Positions 5,089-28,112 of a stretch of 64,000 nucleotides of DNA are shown here, piece after piece; the first letter of the stretch is position 1; each line of letters opens with the position of its first letter. Below the pieces are notes generated by a model that was given only the letters and a program-made list of their open reading frames with translations, was not told the origin of the DNA and did not search any database. Source of the DNA: an uncultured Acetatifactor sp. (GTDB lineage Bacteria > Bacillota > Clostridia > Lachnospirales > Lachnospiraceae); assembly GCA_947595925.1 (NCBI GenBank), contig CANQEV010000001.1:62001-126000 (forward strand), given 5' to 3'. Both the position numbers and the translations under genes were made by a program.

Positions 5089-5100
<12 letters not shown>
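4896..5100. repeat. Degenerate tandem repeat adjacent to and including the 3' end of tRNA-Gly
   Basis: GACAATCGAACCT(C/T)C(A/G)A(A/G)CCCCGGCGG at ~4896 and ~5009 (period 113); ATCAG(G/A)GCGCGAGACGG at 4942-4958 and 5084-5100. Confidence 0.6.
5045..5083 (-). terminator. Terminator downstream of tRNA-Gly
   Basis: AAAACAAAGGAGACATCC-TTT-GGATGCCTCCTTTGTTTT, one mismatch in the stem, U-tract on the minus strand. Confidence 0.75.
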
Positions 5101-21806: not shown

Positions 21807-22030
21807 GACGTCTGTCCTAATCTATTTGATACGGCTAATGGAAAGTCAAGGGTCCGATCCGGATTCGCGAAGGGGCCGGGTTGAGCAGTTACCTCTGACA
21901 AAAGGGGATTTCCCGGGATTGGGCCCGGAGGTTTCTCACTTCTGACAGTGATACTATCATAGTCTCTCCGGAGGATTCTGTCAACTGACCACCTGGAATA
22001 GTTTGAGGAAAATAATTGATATATTGTCAC

Positions 22031-22121
22031 TTTTCACGGGGAATGAACGGCATCCTGCCAGAGCGATACGGCAGAAACCACACCGCCGGATATGCAGCCA
22101 TACAATTTTGGCTGAAAAAAC
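22031..22121. repeat. Left arm of ~90 bp inverted repeat
   Basis: ttttcacggggaatgaacggcatcctgccagagcgatacggcagaaaccacaccgccggatatgcagccatacaattttggctgaaaaaac matches the reverse complement of 24391-24482. Confidence 0.85.
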
Positions 22122-22152
22122 GCAGGGGACAGTAACGCTATTAAGAAGGCGG

Positions 22153-22181
22153 TTTACACGCTTAAGTTTGTGTGATACGAT
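22153..22181 (+). promoter_or_regulatory. Promoter of duplication copy A
   Basis: TTTACA-N17-TACGAT; copy B has TTTACA-N17-TACAAT. Confidence 0.55.
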
Positions 22182-22290
22182 AGTAACATGTTTGGGGCAT
22201 CCTTGCATCAGTATCTGATGAATTCCTTCGTTTAGTTATTGATGTGCAGGTGTCTCCTTCTATAAAGGCAGAAATACGGAAAGGCGCGGG

Positions 22291-23040
22291 ATGATTATGG
22301 TGGAATTGAAGAAAGTTTCCATTAAAAAAGTCTTTGAATCGGTATTTGGCATTCCTCTTTCCGAAAGAGGGTTTGTCCTGTGTAAGAAAAATGGAATTTA
22401 TATGCGCCTTGTGGACGATGAGGTTCTTAAATTTGTCCTGCTTACCAATGATCGGGCTGACACAAGGGATAAAAAGGCGTTTTATATTCAGGCAGGAATG
22501 ATTTCTCTGTATAACGATCGCTTGGATAAAGTCAGATTTCTGCAGCATGGACAAAGAGCGTATAGTATAGCCCAAAAGATAGGGTATCCATATCGTTATC
22601 GTTATGAATACGATCCTTATGATAGAAACGATGCGGAGAAACGAATGAAAGATGCCCTGAAAGAAGCCAGCGACTTATTCTTTCCTGTCATGGATTCAGT
22701 ACAGGGACTGAGTGATTATGTGGATTTTTGTAAAATATATGACGAAGGTCGGCTGTACTTTGCGACTAGGTTTTTATACGATTCTTTGGCGCTTATTATT
22801 CTTGATGATCATGATGATTTTACGGGAATTTTGCAAAGGATAAAAAAAGAGTATGAGCAAGACGGAAGAATGGATAAATATGATGAAGAACGATTGAAGG
22901 AGTGCTTATTTGGCATGGGCACGGGAGAGAGGGATAAGGTGTATGCTGATTCTGAGCTTTACAAAGCTGCTCTTGAAGAAGCGAAACGACGCAGGGAGGC
23001 ATATCTTCAGCAACTAAAAGAGTGGAAAGTAATTGACTGA
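22291..23040 (+). CDS. Hypothetical protein, paralogue A
   Basis: 249 aa; N-terminal ~79 aa identical to paralogue B; promoter and leader present. Confidence 0.85.
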   Translation: MIMVELKKVSIKKVFESVFGIPLSERGFVLCKKNGIYMRLVDDEVLKFVLLTNDRADTRDKKAFYIQAGMISLYNDRLDKVRFLQHGQRAYSIAQKIGYPYRYRYEYDPYDRNDAEKRMKDALKEASDLFFPVMDSVQGLSDYVDFCKIYDEGRLYFATRFLYDSLALIILDDHDDFTGILQRIKKEYEQDGRMDKYDEERLKECLFGMGTGERDKVYADSELYKAALEEAKRRREAYLQQLKEWKVID

Positions 23041-23175
23041 TGAGCCTTGGGAAAAGCACAATTTGTGATGCTGCATTTTCTTTCTTCCGACACTTTTTAA
23101 TGTGAAAGGGACACCGAAACTGGCCTGAATAGTGAGACATTTAAAAAGGTGGAGATCCAGCTATGAAGAAGACGG

Positions 23176-23204
23176 TTTACACGCTTAAGTTTGTTTGATA
23201 CAAT
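23176..23204 (+). promoter_or_regulatory. Promoter of duplication copy B
   Basis: TTTACA-N17-TACAAT. Confidence 0.6.
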
Positions 23205-23314
23205 AGTAACATGTTTGAGGCATCCTTGCATCAGTATCTGATGAATTCCTTCAGCTTTGTTATTGATGTGCAGGTGTCTCCTTCTATAAAGGCAGAAATA
23301 CGGAAAGGCGCGGG

Positions 23315-24064
23315 ATGATTATGGTGGAATTGAAGAAAGTTTCCATTAAAAAAGTCTTTGAATCGGTATTTGGCATTCCTCTTTCCGAAAGAGGGTTTGT
23401 CCTGTGTAAGAAAAATGGAATTTATATGCGCCTTGTGGACGATGAGGTTCTTAAATTTGTCCTGCTTACCAATGATCGGGCTGACACAAGGGATAAAAAG
23501 GCGTTTTATATTCAGGCAGGAATGATTTCTTTGTATAATGATCGGTTGGATAAAGTCAAATTTTTACAGTATGGACTAAGAGCGGGTACATTAGCTAAAC
23601 AGCTGGGGTATCCATATCGACATCGTTATGAATACGATCCTTATGATAGAAACGATGCAGAAAAACAAATGAAAGCCGCATTAGAAGAATCCTGCAGCAT
23701 ATTTTTCCCTATAATGGATTCGGTACAGGGTTTGAGTGACTATGTGGATTATTGTAAAATGTATAGAATACATCACCTTTACTTTGCAACCAGGTTTGCA
23801 AATGATTCTCTGGCACTCGTACTTCTTGATGATCATGATGATTTTACAGGCATTTTGCAACGAGAAAAAAAGGGATATGAGCAAAATGGGAGAATGGATC
23901 AATTTGATGAAGAACGGTTAAAGGAATGTCTATTTGAATTTGGTACGGGAGAGAGGGATAAGGTGTATGCTGATTCAGAGCTTTACAAAGCTGCTCTTGA
24001 AGAAGCGAAACGACGCAGGGAGGCATATCTTCAGCAACTAAAAGAGTGGAAAGTAATTGACTGA
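23315..24064 (+). CDS. Hypothetical protein, paralogue B
   Basis: 249 aa; same N and C termini as paralogue A, diverged centre. Confidence 0.85.
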   Translation: MIMVELKKVSIKKVFESVFGIPLSERGFVLCKKNGIYMRLVDDEVLKFVLLTNDRADTRDKKAFYIQAGMISLYNDRLDKVKFLQYGLRAGTLAKQLGYPYRHRYEYDPYDRNDAEKQMKAALEESCSIFFPIMDSVQGLSDYVDYCKMYRIHHLYFATRFANDSLALVLLDDHDDFTGILQREKKGYEQNGRMDQFDEERLKECLFEFGTGERDKVYADSELYKAALEEAKRRREAYLQQLKEWKVID

Positions 24065-24390
24065 TGAGCCTGGGGAAAAGCACAATTTGTGATGCTGCAT
24101 TTTCTTTCTTCCGACACTTTTTGGAGCAAGCCTTGTAAGCTTGCTCCACTTTTTCAAAACTCCTTCTGGGTGGGAATCTCCGGGCAGTCTAAGAGCAAAA
24201 TGAGTGCAGTTACAACGCCTGAATCGATGTCAGTTAGTTAAGCTAGTGGGTTAGATCCCTTCAAACGATTACAGACCGCCCACTTCAGAAGACCGAAACA
24301 CTGTGCCTACAGGGCAGCGCAACCACCGGACAGCTGTTAACAGCATACCGCCGTTTTGCAGCGGGTGCAATCCCCGTTTGTTTGCCATAT

Positions 24391-24482
24391 GTTTTTTTAG
24401 CCAAAAGTGCATGGCTGCATATCCGGCGGTGTGGTTTCTGCCGTATCGCACGGGCAGGGTGTCGTTCATTCCCCGTGAAAAA
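24391..24482. repeat. Right arm of ~90 bp inverted repeat
   Basis: gtttttttagccaaaagtgcatggctgcatatccggcggtgtggtttctgccgtatcgcacgggcagggtgtcgttcattccccgtgaaaaa. Confidence 0.85.
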
Positions 24483-24718
24483 TGGGTTTACGCCTTTTGG
24501 ACGATAGGTCAACTTCCTTAACTAATTGACATTGACGAGTGAACTGTAAAAAATTTTCCGAAACCGTTTTTTCAGCCGCCAATCTCGTTGACAAGTTCTG
24601 TCGAAATAATGTAACATAAAGTTAGAATCTCGGAAAAATGATTGCTCGAGGGGAAAAGAATCGCTGTGAGCCAAAGAAAACAAGCGGGATATGTGAATCG
24701 GGACAAGGAATCAAAAAG

Positions 24719-25444
24719 ATGATATTGATCGGCATCTGTGATGATGAAAAATTGCATCGCCAAACCATCACGCAGCTTTGTGAACAATTTTTTGAGGAAT
24801 TTGAACAGGAGCATACATACATTGAATTTGCTTCGGGAGAGGAAGTCCTTGCGTATCAGGGCGATCAGCTTCATTTGCTTTTTTTGGATATTGAAATGGG
24901 CGATGTCAGCGGCTTGGACGTGCTTGACAGTCTGAGGGAGAGCGATAAAATCTGGAGGATCGCCTTCGCTTCCAGCCACGGTGAACAGCGTCTTGACACC
25001 ATAGACATGAAGACGCTTGCCTTTTTAGATAAACCATTAAGTTATGAGGGCGTAAAAAAATGCCTGGAGATCGCCATTGCGGAAAATGCGCGAAACATAA
25101 GCGCCACATTCACCTTATTGGATGGAAAGAAAGATTTTAAACTGAGCGAGATCGTATATATTCGGGCAGAAAAGCACTATATGAGCGTATGTGCCAAACA
25201 ATGTGACTTTATGGGATATGACAGCATGAAGCAGGTTGAAGAACAGCTTCAAGGAACTACCATGATACGCATTCATAAGTCATACCTGGCAAATATGCAG
25301 TACATAAAGAAACTGACAGCGGAGGAAGTGCTGATGTCAAATGGGAAGAGGCTGCCGATTGGCCGAAAGTATAAATCTGTTGTGAAAGAAGCTTTTTATC
25401 AATTTGTAAGATCGGTCACAATTGGAAGGAATGGTGCAAAGTGA
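24719..25444 (+). CDS. LytTR family response regulator
   Basis: MILIGICDDEKLHRQTI, LLFLDIEMGDVSGLDVL, C-terminal LytTR domain (IVYIRAEKHYMSV...MIRIHKSYLANMQYI...LPIGRKYK). Confidence 0.92.
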   Translation: MILIGICDDEKLHRQTITQLCEQFFEEFEQEHTYIEFASGEEVLAYQGDQLHLLFLDIEMGDVSGLDVLDSLRESDKIWRIAFASSHGEQRLDTIDMKTLAFLDKPLSYEGVKKCLEIAIAENARNISATFTLLDGKKDFKLSEIVYIRAEKHYMSVCAKQCDFMGYDSMKQVEEQLQGTTMIRIHKSYLANMQYIKKLTAEEVLMSNGKRLPIGRKYKSVVKEAFYQFVRSVTIGRNGAK

Positions 25445-26724
25445 TCTTTTTCGGGATAATGCAAGTCATTGATCTCCTGAATTACTGTTTCATTTATCGT
25501 GTGATCTTCCGCGCAAGGTTTATCAAGAGCACTGTGTGGAAGATTGTTGTATTGGTGGGAAGCCTTGCAATGACAGAGTTGCTGTTGTTCTTCAAGGTAT
25601 TTCATTTTGGAGAGAGGGCGGTGGCGTTGGCTTGCCTGATTGCTGTCGCCGTATTATTGCGTGAAGATCGCATTCGGGCATTGCTCCTTTTTCCGGTCGC
25701 GTTCATGCTTTCCGGATCGGTAAATGTGCTTTTTACATATATTTTCTCTTTTTTGCTTGAAATTCCATACGCGGAATTCCTGGATTCCCCTTTCCTGCAG
25801 ATTGTCTCGGAAATTCCCTTATTGCTTTTCCTTTCAGGGATGTATTTTTTCGTAAAGCCCCAAAAGTTAAACGGGCTGATCCGATTGAGTATCCCCAAGT
25901 ATTTGATCTTATTATTGGGAATTGGCTGCCTGTTCGTTCTGGTAGGCATTTCACAGGGGTTTATGCTTGGCAGGGTGGAAGCGGCTACGCTGATGCGTCC
26001 TATGGCGATCTGCTTTGTCATCGCGGTAAGTCTTTTTGTCCTGCTGATCCTATGGCAGGCTGTCATCGAAGGAAAGGCGCGCCAGTATCAAGTGGAGAAA
26101 GAACTTTACCGAAATTATCTGGATAAGCAGGAGACGCACATCCGGGATCTCATTGAGTCTGATGAGAAGCTGAGAAGCTTTCGGCATGATATACGTGCAC
26201 ATATTACTGCATTGGAGGCGGGAATTGAAGAAGGGGATCTCGACTTCCTAAAATCTTACGTGGCACGCATCAAAGAGGAGAACGAGAAAATTGCAGTTAT
26301 AAAATATACAGGGATTGCGGCGGTGGATGCTGTGATTGCAGAATGGCATCAAAAGGCGTTGGATGCCGGCGTAGAGTGGATTTGGGAAGGCGGTCTGTTG
26401 CCGTATGATCAGTTTGAAACATTTGATTTATGCGTGATCTTCTCCAATTTGCTCAGCAATGCTGTTGAGGCGGTAGAAAAGGTGGAAGGCGGACGGAAAA
26501 AAAGCATTACTGTCTACTGTGGAGCCTTTCAGGGAAACACCATCCTTCGGATAACAAATACATATCCCGGAGACGGCAACCTGAAGGAACTTAAGACCAC
26601 CAAAGCTGACAGATTAAATCATGGTTACGGATTGAAAAATGTAGAAGAAGTGGTAAAAAGGCCACAAGGCTCTTTTCAGATCACCGTGGAAGACGGAGAG
26701 TTTCAAGCGGAAATCATTCTGTGA
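25441..26724 (+). CDS. GHKL sensor histidine kinase (AgrC-like)
   Basis: 6-7 TM N-terminus, LRSFRHDIRAHITALEAGI H-box, DLCVIFSNLLSNAVEAVEK N-box, HGYGLKNVEEVV G-box; 4 bp overlap with RR. Confidence 0.92.
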   Translation: MIFFGIMQVIDLLNYCFIYRVIFRARFIKSTVWKIVVLVGSLAMTELLLFFKVFHFGERAVALACLIAVAVLLREDRIRALLLFPVAFMLSGSVNVLFTYIFSFLLEIPYAEFLDSPFLQIVSEIPLLLFLSGMYFFVKPQKLNGLIRLSIPKYLILLLGIGCLFVLVGISQGFMLGRVEAATLMRPMAICFVIAVSLFVLLILWQAVIEGKARQYQVEKELYRNYLDKQETHIRDLIESDEKLRSFRHDIRAHITALEAGIEEGDLDFLKSYVARIKEENEKIAVIKYTGIAAVDAVIAEWHQKALDAGVEWIWEGGLLPYDQFETFDLCVIFSNLLSNAVEAVEKVEGGRKKSITVYCGAFQGNTILRITNTYPGDGNLKELKTTKADRLNHGYGLKNVEEVVKRPQGSFQITVEDGEFQAEIIL

Positions 26725-26748
26725 CACCTTTATATGTTGTTTATATCA

Positions 26749-26816
26749 GCAAATGCCCTGCAAATTATGCAGTTTGTGCAAAAAACACGTAGTTCGTGCA
26801 AGGGCATTTGCCTTTT
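26749..26816 (+). terminator. Hairpin/terminator-like structure enclosing a ~20 bp-period direct repeat
   Basis: AGCAAATGCCCT...AGGGCATTTGCCTTTTT; interior GCAGTTTGTGCA (26769) and GTAGTTCGTGCA (26789). Confidence 0.6.
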
Positions 26817-26897
26817 TATGGACTAAAACGCATAATGTAAGAAAAGCGAGGGAGGACAGAAAGATGTTTGGGGCAACTGGCATGAGGGGGTAAAGTG

Positions 26898-27425
26898 ATG
26901 CTGAAGACGAATCTTATCTTTGTATTATTTTTATGGATGGTGTTAAGCTGTCTCAGATTTTCCGGCTCCGGCGAGAAATTCGTGCCACCGAAGGAGATTG
27001 CACAGCAGAAAAGCGACAGTATTATGACAGCATTCATGAACCATGATAAGGAGGCATTCAAAGAACTTCTATGTCCCGGACTGCAGGAAGAACATCCGGA
27101 TCTGGATCGTGAGATGGAAGAACTGTTTGCCTTTGTCGAGGGAGATATTATATCCTATGATTTGGATTATCCTACAGCCCGCGGTGGTTCTACTACAGAG
27201 TTAGGCTGGGTAAAACAGTTTATAACCACAAAAATTATTGATATTCAAACCAGCAGCGGTAAGTCATATAACATTCATTACACGTTCAATACAATATATA
27301 AAGGGCATCCTGAGCAATTAGGCATTACATATATTTGTATCTATAAAAGTGATGCTCCACACGATCCTGTAACCGGGTACCCTCCGGGAGAGAGTTATCT
27401 CATTGAATTTAAGGGTCGCTTGTAA
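26898..27425 (+). CDS. DUF5104-like secreted/lipoprotein, paralogue A
   Basis: N-terminal hydrophobic segment VLFLWMVLSCLRFSGSG (lipobox-like Cys), QKSDSIMTAFMNHDKEAFKELLCPGL; tandem paralogue downstream. Confidence 0.7.
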   Translation: MLKTNLIFVLFLWMVLSCLRFSGSGEKFVPPKEIAQQKSDSIMTAFMNHDKEAFKELLCPGLQEEHPDLDREMEELFAFVEGDIISYDLDYPTARGGSTTELGWVKQFITTKIIDIQTSSGKSYNIHYTFNTIYKGHPEQLGITYICIYKSDAPHDPVTGYPPGESYLIEFKGRL

Positions 27426-27493
27426 AAGGTGCTGCGGGCTGAGGCAAAAGAAAAATATACGGTTTGGGTTAACTGGCATAAAGGGGCAAAGTG

Positions 27494-28024
27494 ATGCTGA
27501 AGACGAATCTTATCTTTGTATTATTTTTATGGATGGTGTTAAGCTGTCTCAGATTCTCCGGCTCCGGCGAGAAATTCGTGCCACCGGAGGAGATTGCCCG
27601 GCAGAAAAGTGACGATATCATGGCAGCCTTCATGAACCATGACAAAGAGGCATTCAAAGAATTTCTATGTCCTGGCCTGAAGGAAGAACATCCGGATCTG
27701 GATCGTGAGATGGAAGAACTGTTTGCCTTTGTCGGTGGGGATATTATTTCTTACGATGAAAGTTATATTGTAAGCAGCGGTGGTACAACGAAGGGGATGC
27801 TGGGCTGGGTAGAAAAATATACCTCTTCAAGAATTGAAAACATTCAAACCAGCAACGGTAAGTCATATGGCATATACTACATGCTTTATACCATATATGA
27901 CGAGCATCCTGAGCAATTAGGAATTACACATATTTGTATTTACACAAGTGATGCTCCGTATGATCCGGTTACCGGGTACCCTCCGGGAGAGAGCTATCTC
28001 ATTGAATTTAAGGGCCGCTTGTAA
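27494..28024 (+). CDS. DUF5104-like secreted/lipoprotein, paralogue B
   Basis: Same leader and termini as paralogue A (596 bp period). Confidence 0.7.
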   Translation: MLKTNLIFVLFLWMVLSCLRFSGSGEKFVPPEEIARQKSDDIMAAFMNHDKEAFKEFLCPGLKEEHPDLDREMEELFAFVGGDIISYDESYIVSSGGTTKGMLGWVEKYTSSRIENIQTSNGKSYGIYYMLYTIYDEHPEQLGITHICIYTSDAPYDPVTGYPPGESYLIEFKGRL

Positions 28025-28068
28025 AAGGTGCTGCGGGTTGAGTGATCCGGGAAAGAGAAAAGGTTTCA

Positions 28069-28112
28069 GAATAAGCCTGCCCTGTATATCTTGGGGTGGG
28101 CTTATTAAATTT
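28069..28112 (+). terminator. Probable intrinsic terminator after the DUF5104 pair
   Basis: AATAAGCCtgCCCtgtatatcttggggtGGGCTTATT. Confidence 0.55.

What the first reader, a model, noticed from the sequence alone, without database searches (positions are those of the whole stretch)
22031..28112. LytTR/GHKL two-component system flanked by two unrelated tandem gene duplications
Order on one strand: unknown protein A / A' (22291, 23315), LytTR regulator + AgrC-like kinase (24719-26724), DUF5104-like secreted protein B / B' (26898, 27494). Two independent tandem duplications directly around one quorum-sensing-type regulatory pair is unusual. It resembles diversifying effector/immunity or peptide-sensing loci. 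No agrB/agrD-like gene was recognised. This is the best candidate in the window for an undescribed module; any function is inference.
Basis: partly seen in the sequence, partly recalled or inferred. Interest (0 to 1): 0.62.

Follow-up and report, generated by a model that had tools for sequence, protein, structure and literature searches.

The report
Orphan toxin-immunity genes beside unrelated sensor
Two pairs of duplicated genes in a gut bacterium are most likely leftover "antidote" genes against toxins that rival bacteria make, kept without the toxin genes themselves, and the signalling genes between them appear to be unrelated neighbours.

Summary
In detail: two tandem gene pairs (A/A' 22291-24064, B/B' 26895-28024) flank a LytTR/GHKL two-component system (24719-26724). 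The proposed single TCS-centred module is not supported. A/A' belongs to an undescribed family outside Pfam. Two other genomes carry A homologues directly behind a secreted VWA toxin with a Tox-REase-9-like C-terminus (one intact, one decayed); in a third the toxin is deleted and A remains. So A is most likely an immunity protein, orphaned here. B/B' is DUF5104 (NTF2-like lipoprotein). Elsewhere DUF5104 genes lie directly behind DUF4474-type toxins on four delivery chassis (RHS, eCIS, LXG, and the same CBM2/VWA chassis in this genus), so B/B' is plausibly orphan immunity too, though its tree placement is unresolved. Neither toxin was found in this genome. Both pairs have near-identical ends and old, divergent middles, the signature of recombination reported for esaG/tipC immunity genes. 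Terminator-like hairpins separate A/A' | TCS | B/B'. A sister species has TCS+B/B' without A/A' at that site; no other A or DUF5104 locus carries this TCS. This is a small heterogeneous polyimmunity locus: a known kind, with one undescribed immunity family and a proposed function for DUF5104. Evidence is comparative only.

The parts
22028..22137 (+). left arm of the inverted repeat flanking A/A'; the orthologous copy lies at the A-less site in sister species G029
   Evidence: (I1, 86% complementary to 24375-24484)
22137..23098 (+). A unit 1: promoter-like site, gene A and conserved 3' tail; matches a unit elsewhere in G029
   Evidence: (L009 277-1244 = window 22137-23098, 87.5%)
22153..22181 (+). 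promoter-like TTTACA-17-TACGAT with TG before the -10, upstream of A
   Evidence: consensus match only
22291..23040 (+). gene A: probable orphan immunity protein (undescribed family; cognate toxin type = Tox-REase-9-like CTD on a VWA chassis)
23158..24131 (+). A unit 2
   Evidence: L009 275-1253 = window 23158-24131, 89.7%
23176..23204 (+). promoter-like TTTACA-17-TACAAT with TG before the -10, upstream of A'
   Evidence: consensus match only
23315..24064 (+). gene A': second orphan immunity paralogue, ends near-identical to A, middle divergent
24122..24148 (+). intrinsic-terminator-like hairpin after A' (10-bp stem, then CTTTTTC)
24375..24484 (-). right arm of the inverted repeat, inside the segment absent from G029
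24719..25444 (+). LytTR response regulator (independent neighbour)
   Evidence: LytTR 1.6e-18, Response_reg 4.3e-11
25441..26724 (+). GHKL histidine kinase, overlapping the RR by 4 nt (independent neighbour)
   Evidence: HATPase_c_5 2.2e-22
26749..26811 (+). terminator-like hairpin between HK and B, followed by CUUUUU
   Evidence: -27.8 kcal/mol, z -3.65
26895..27425 (+). gene B: DUF5104 lipoprotein (lipobox-like VLSC), plausible orphan immunity protein against DUF4474 toxins
27491..28024 (+). gene B': DUF5104 paralogue whose 5' end matches B in this lineage only (gene conversion)
28070..28106 (+). terminator-like hairpin after B' (weak T-run)
   Evidence: -20.9 kcal/mol, z -4.83

Best explanation
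The locus is a small heterogeneous polyimmunity locus, not one signalling module. A/A' are orphan copies of a cytoplasmic immunity protein whose cognate toxin is a secreted CBM2-VWA polymorphic toxin with a restriction-endonuclease-fold (Tox-REase-9-like) C-terminal domain. B/B' are surface-anchored, NTF2-like DUF5104 lipoproteins, plausibly immunity proteins against toxins with a DUF4474 C-terminal domain. Neither toxin was found in this genome, so the genes would protect against toxins delivered by neighbouring Lachnospiraceae by binding and blocking them. The paralogues diversify by recombination: near-identical 5' and 3' blocks act as crossover or conversion sites while the divergent middles carry specificity. 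A/A' is carried in about 1-kb units, each with a promoter-like site, found at different loci in different species. The LytTR/GHKL pair is an ordinary two-component system next door. Shown: anatomy, no toxin match in the assembly, toxin adjacency of both families elsewhere, mosaic identity, A/A' presence/absence between sister species. Inferred: immunity function, target specificity, cell-surface location of B, independent transcription.
For: (1) A family with toxins: in L010 (Lachnospiraceae SIG334) two tandem A homologues start 10 nt after a 1070-aa protein with CBM2 x2, VWA and a sub-threshold Tox-REase-9 match (E 0.0064) with a WEVKP motif. In L128 (G850) an A homologue lies about 0.2-0.3 kb behind a frameshifted VWA + REase toxin remnant (tblastn 2e-8). 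In L011 (RUI221) the toxin is deleted except its first 42 codons and a short 3' stub, and A is kept. (2) DUF5104 with toxins: 11 of 33 class-wide DUF5104 loci have a DUF4474-type CTD directly upstream on the same strand, on RHS (L134), eCIS-core (L138, L140) and LXG (L158, Lachnospiraceae) chassis. In same-genus G002 a CBM2-TSP3-VWA-DUF4474 toxin is followed immediately by a DUF5104 lipoprotein, read across a 51-bp exact contig overlap. (3) The own genome has no DUF4474 match and no homologue of the CBM2/VWA toxin at E<=1e-10. (4) Mosaic evolution: A 5' end dS=0, middle dS about 0.96; a 237-bp run is exact between species whose neighbouring DNA is 87-96% identical; B' codons 1-30 differ 34% from its G029 orthologue but 1% from B. 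This matches esaG/tipC (PMC9484751). (5) A and DUF5104 co-occur without a TCS, beside a resolvase, in L214. (6) The B model matches the NTF2-like structure 4r1k, E 3e-6.
Against: No experiment. Only two A loci have an adjacent toxin or remnant, plus one truncated toxin; several other A homologues are orphan. In the DUF5104 tree B groups with free-standing lipoproteins with weak support and the backbone is unresolved, and most DUF5104 genes in this genus lack a toxin neighbour, so B may do something else. The A model is mediocre (pLDDT 68) with no PDB match. Middle regions have dN<dS, so pairwise averages show no positive selection. The genome is a 77-contig assembly (96.9% complete), so a toxin in a gap cannot be excluded.
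Confidence: 0.7

Rival explanations
1. First reader's module: the LytTR/GHKL system senses a peptide or toxin signal and controls both flanking arrays, so the six genes form one competition-sensing immunity module.
For: All six genes are on one strand within 6 kb. TCS+B/B' is conserved in sister species G029 at about 93% DNA identity. Homologous kinases in G046, G066 and G028 lie near what read as RiPP or radical-SAM genes, so the TCS may sense a peptide.
Against: A/A' is absent from the orthologous site in G029. Terminator-like hairpins follow A' and HK, and A and A' have their own promoter-like sites. There is no recurrent association in 11 A loci, 51 DUF5104 loci or 8 TCS loci. The one shared upstream 12-mer (ATGTTTGGGGCA) is not conserved in G029.
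Confidence: 0.07
2. B/B' are free-standing NTF2-like lipoproteins with a housekeeping or sensory accessory role (perhaps linked to the TCS), not immunity; only A/A' are immunity genes.
For: B falls among toxin-less DUF5104 lipoproteins with weak support; most DUF5104 genes in the genus are solitary; B/B' stays beside the TCS in both sister species.
Against: DUF5104 lies directly behind DUF4474 toxins on four chassis, including the CBM2/VWA chassis in the same genus. Among the sequences of the hand alignment the closest one outside G029 is the G002 toxin-linked protein (34% identity). B/B' shows the same end-conversion pattern as immunity paralogues.
Confidence: 0.35
3. A/A' is not an immunity family but cargo of a small mobile element (inverted-repeat-flanked unit) with another function.
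For: A 110-nt inverted repeat flanks A/A'; about 1-kb units with a promoter-like site occur at different loci.
Against: Behind VWA/REase toxins the A gene occupies the immunity slot, intact in L010 and beside a decayed toxin in L128, and it outlives the toxin in L011. The repeat arm has only two copies in the genome, so it is not an active repeat family, and no recombinase was seen beside it.
Confidence: 0.1

Closest known systems
Heterogeneous/homogeneous polyimmunity loci of polymorphic toxin systems (Zhang et al. 2012, PMC3482391)
   Same: Tandem paralogues of one immunity family next to a structurally unrelated immunity family, without the toxins
   Different: Small (2+2 genes) and split by a two-component system; DUF5104 and DUF4474 have no hit at all in the open library searched, so neither is described there under these names
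esaG and tipC immunity arrays of the firmicute T7SS (PMC9484751)
   Same: Conserved blocks at or near gene ends, variable centre, recombination between tandem paralogues; TipC, like B, is an outward-facing lipoprotein
   Different: Unrelated protein families, only two copies each, toxin gene absent from the locus, partner toxins in relatives are CBM2/VWA or LXG/RHS/eCIS proteins
Imm54, the reported partner of Tox-REase-9 (PMC3482391)
   Same: Partner toxin is Tox-REase-9-like; alpha+beta; A has the invariant GF, and a Q in most members, reported as the Imm54 motif
   Different: A matches no relevant Pfam model and has a long C-terminal half; kinship untested beyond that
DUF5104 (PF17117) / NTF2-like protein EUBSIR_01394 (PDB 4r1k)
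   Same: B and B' score 66 bits against PF17117; predicted fold matches 4r1k at E 3e-6, probability 1.0
   Different: No function is recorded in the sources searched; the toxin linkage proposed here is an inference
Agr-type LytTR/GHKL quorum-sensing systems
   Same: RR = receiver + LytTR, HK = membrane domain + GHKL, overlapping genes
   Different: No agrB/agrD recognised; weak scores to the AgrA and AgrC equivalog models (25 and 27 bits against cut-offs of 400 and 500)

Membership tests
Polymorphic-toxin immunity family (gene A) | Family members lie immediately downstream of a polymorphic toxin on the same strand | tested here: met
   L010 (10 nt gap) and decayed L128; toxin deletion with A kept in L011. 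Not so in the window itself (orphan)
Polymorphic-toxin immunity family (gene A) | Neutralises the cognate toxin | not testable with these tools
   needs co-expression or binding assay
Imm54 | Profile match to a described immunity family | tested here: not met
   no relevant Pfam match for any of 6 aligned or 7 further A homologues
DUF5104 (PF17117) | Score above the curated cut-off | tested here: met
   66.2 and 66.4 bits vs 27
DUF5104 as immunity to DUF4474 toxins | Recurrent position directly downstream of one toxin domain on several delivery chassis | tested here: met
   11 of 33 class-wide loci; RHS, eCIS, LXG and CBM2/VWA chassis
DUF5104 as immunity to DUF4474 toxins | B itself belongs to the toxin-linked subset | tested here: inconclusive
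   backbone of the 66-sequence tree unresolved; B groups weakly with toxin-less members
Polyimmunity locus | Immunity genes of one or more families clustered without their toxin | tested here: met
   no DUF4474 and no CBM2/VWA toxin homologue found in G000; conditional on A and B being immunity genes; draft assembly
esaG/tipC-type recombining immunity paralogues | Conserved ends, variable centre, evidence of recombination between paralogues | tested here: met
   B' 5' conversion dated to after the split from G029. No formal recombination test (such as RDP) was run
Agr quorum-sensing locus | agrB processing protease and agrD pro-peptide linked to the TCS | tested here: inconclusive
   none recognised by eye in the ORF list of 18-32 kb, but no agrB/agrD profile was run on the small ORFs
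   only the sister species G029, and there only with B/B'

The most novel reading that the evidence does not exclude
A peptide- or toxin-sensing LytTR/GHKL system has captured two unrelated orphan immunity arrays on either side and switches them on when competitors are sensed: an inducible, toxin-free immunity island in gut Lachnospiraceae.
Probability: 0.06. Interest if true: 0.65.

Novelty: new member of a known kind. Interest (0 to 1): 0.42.

Why it matters
It turns a vague 'unknown module' into testable claims. Gene A defines an undescribed immunity family paired with Tox-REase-9-like toxins. DUF5104, a Pfam family without a function in the sources searched, is probably the immunity partner of DUF4474 toxin domains across RHS, eCIS, LXG and CBM2/VWA toxins. 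Gut Lachnospiraceae (Acetatifactor and relatives) carry a secreted CBM2-VWA polymorphic toxin chassis with swappable C-terminal domains, and keep toxin-free immunity genes that recombine like the staphylococcal esaG and streptococcal tipC arrays.

Tried and rejected
Shared regulation: a 12-mer upstream of A and B (ATGTTTGGGGCA) is not conserved in G029, so rejected. Known family for A: Pfam, NCBIfam, PADLOC and PDB sequence searches were negative; AlphaFold2 model of moderate quality with no PDB fold match. Herpesvirus PRTP, Thoc2 and DnaD hits are sub-threshold and discarded. RNA element: one Rfam hit in the window, a tRNA at 5089, nothing in the locus. Inverted repeat as a dispersed element: only two copies in this genome and one in the 116 relatives searched. 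Positive selection in the variable middles: pairwise dN/dS well below 1. Literature searches for DUF5104 and DUF4474 gave no papers in the open library.
Full report
Observation. All six genes exist as described. The regulator has receiver and LytTR domains, the kinase a GHKL ATPase domain, B and B' are DUF5104 (PF17117), and A and A' match no curated family above cut-off. The duplications are real but not simple recent copies. A and A' are identical over codons 1-70, differ at 21% of nucleotides over codons 71-205 (dS about 0.96), and are nearly identical again at the 3' end. B and B' are near-identical over codons 1-30 and differ by 28% in codons 81-155. A 110-nt inverted repeat flanks A/A'.

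The sister species. Genome G029 (its contig is titled 'uncultured Acetatifactor sp.') carries the ABC transporter genes, one arm of the repeat, and then directly the response regulator: the alignment jumps from window 22132 to 24587 with 7 bp between in G029, so A/A' is missing there. On another contig it carries the end of the regulator, the kinase (95% identical protein), B and B'. Its single A unit lies elsewhere, beside a methyltransferase gene and a trp operon. So A/A' is not a fixed partner of the TCS. Whether A/A' was inserted in one lineage or lost in the other is not settled. The trp-side unit and the window units share about 975 bp, including the upstream promoter-like site and the 3' tail.

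What A is. A homologues are rare: 3 of 117 relatives, 6 of 397 genomes of the family sample and 4 of 392 of the order sample, the own genome counted in each, plus three loci in the GTDB contig scan, two of which repeat genomes found in the first search. Context identifies them. In L010 two tandem A homologues begin 10 nt behind a 1070-aa secreted protein with two CBM2 domains, a VWA domain and a weak Tox-REase-9 match. In L128 an A homologue lies just behind a frameshifted VWA-REase toxin remnant. In L011, at the same pflB-mecA locus as L010, the toxin is reduced to its first 42 codons and a 3' stub while A is intact, which catches an immunity gene being orphaned. Zhang et al. list Imm54 (alpha+beta; motifs GF and Q) as the partner of Tox-REase-9 (PMC3482391). 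A has the invariant GF and, in most members, a Q, but no detectable profile match, so kinship to Imm54 is a lead only.

What B is. The B model matches the solved NTF2-like protein 4r1k (E 3e-6, probability 1.0). DUF5104 neighbourhoods from a class-wide sample show a DUF4474-type toxin domain directly upstream in 11 of 33 fetched loci (L138 is counted although its reading frames overlap), carried by RHS proteins, eCIS-core proteins and, in Lachnospiraceae, an LXG protein. The class-wide loci were picked from the best-scoring matches, so 11 of 33 is not an unbiased rate. In G002, the same genus as the window, a CBM2-TSP3-VWA protein ends in DUF4474 and is followed at once by a DUF5104 lipoprotein. 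The two contigs join through an exact 51-bp overlap, and a duplicate DUF4474 fragment follows; the join is inferred from that overlap. One toxin domain and one immunity family on four delivery chassis is the hallmark of a polymorphic toxin pair. For B itself the case is weaker: it falls among toxin-less DUF5104 lipoproteins in a tree whose backbone is unresolved, and it stays beside the TCS in both sister species.

Orphan status. The window's genome has no DUF4474 match and no homologue of the CBM2/VWA toxin at E<=1e-10, though 28 and 16 other genomes of its genus, respectively, have such matches. Most of the genus's DUF4474 matches are full-length domains in open frames of about 300 residues, and were not examined. 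The assembly is 96.9% complete in 77 contigs, so absence is probable, not proven.

How the paralogues evolve. A 237-bp run around the 5' end of A is exact between the window and G029, although neighbouring orthologous DNA differs by 4-13%; at 5% divergence the chance of no difference is about 5e-6. B' in the window has the 5' end of B (1% different) while its G029 orthologue differs by 34% there, a conversion dated after the species split. Garrett et al. describe the same pattern, conserved blocks with a variable centre and recombination between tandem paralogues, for esaG and tipC immunity genes, TipC being an outward-facing lipoprotein (PMC9484751).

The TCS. Hairpins with T-runs follow A' and the kinase, so the three blocks probably form separate transcription units. 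None of eight homologous TCS loci carries A or DUF5104, and apart from the sister species none of 51 DUF5104 or 11 A loci has the kinase. Near some homologous kinases the ORFs read by eye as radical-SAM/SPASM or leader-peptide genes, so peptide sensing is possible for the TCS, but that says nothing about A or B.

Independent co-occurrence. In L214 (G966, another family of the order) an A homologue and a DUF5104 lipoprotein lie 1.4 kb apart beside a resolvase and an integrase-core fragment, with no TCS. The two families can therefore meet in an immunity island without this regulator.

Verdict. The best reading is a small heterogeneous polyimmunity locus interrupted by an unrelated TCS. A as an immunity family: about 0.85. 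A/A' orphan here: about 0.8. B/B' as immunity: about 0.6. TCS independent: about 0.85. These are judgements, not computed values.

Noticed in passing
L010 5642-8854; L196 163-3942; L199 1915-5634; L200 2015-5440; L201 1086-4442; L203 2721-6254: Acetatifactor and relatives carry secreted proteins of about 1070-1260 aa with CBM2 and TSP3/VWA regions and differing C-termini, several followed by 2-4 tandem small lipoprotein or membrane genes: a polymorphic toxin chassis with immunity arrays in gut Lachnospiraceae.
   Followed up: partly
L066 6077-6412 (G002): A fragment almost identical to the DUF4474 C-terminal domain lies downstream of the toxin-immunity pair (98% over 44 aa), like the standalone CTD cassettes of polymorphic toxins.
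   Followed up: partly
L011 9389-10841 vs L010 5207-9704: Internal deletion of the toxin gene in RUI221 leaving 42 codons, a short 3' stub and an intact immunity gene.
   Followed up: yes
window 22028-22137 and 24375-24484: 110-nt inverted repeat flanking A/A', only two copies in this genome and one in the sister species; origin unknown.
   Followed up: partly
L214 3041-7157 (G966): Independent island with resolvase, integrase-core fragment, DUF5104 lipoprotein and a shortened A homologue.
   Followed up: partly
L083 3759-12538 (G046): Two LytTR/GHKL pairs surround a 93-aa protein with a GG-type leader-like stretch (VLKEEDLKDVSGG), with ABC transporter genes beyond: a possible RiPP locus with relatives of this kinase.
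   Followed up: no
L158 6516-8824 and L162 6513-8750: LXG (T7SS-type) DUF4474 toxin with a small upstream partner-like gene and a DUF5104 lipoprotein directly behind.
   Followed up: partly
L130 8042-9466 (G586): A 474-aa protein that matches the A profile, possibly a fusion of two domains.
   Followed up: no
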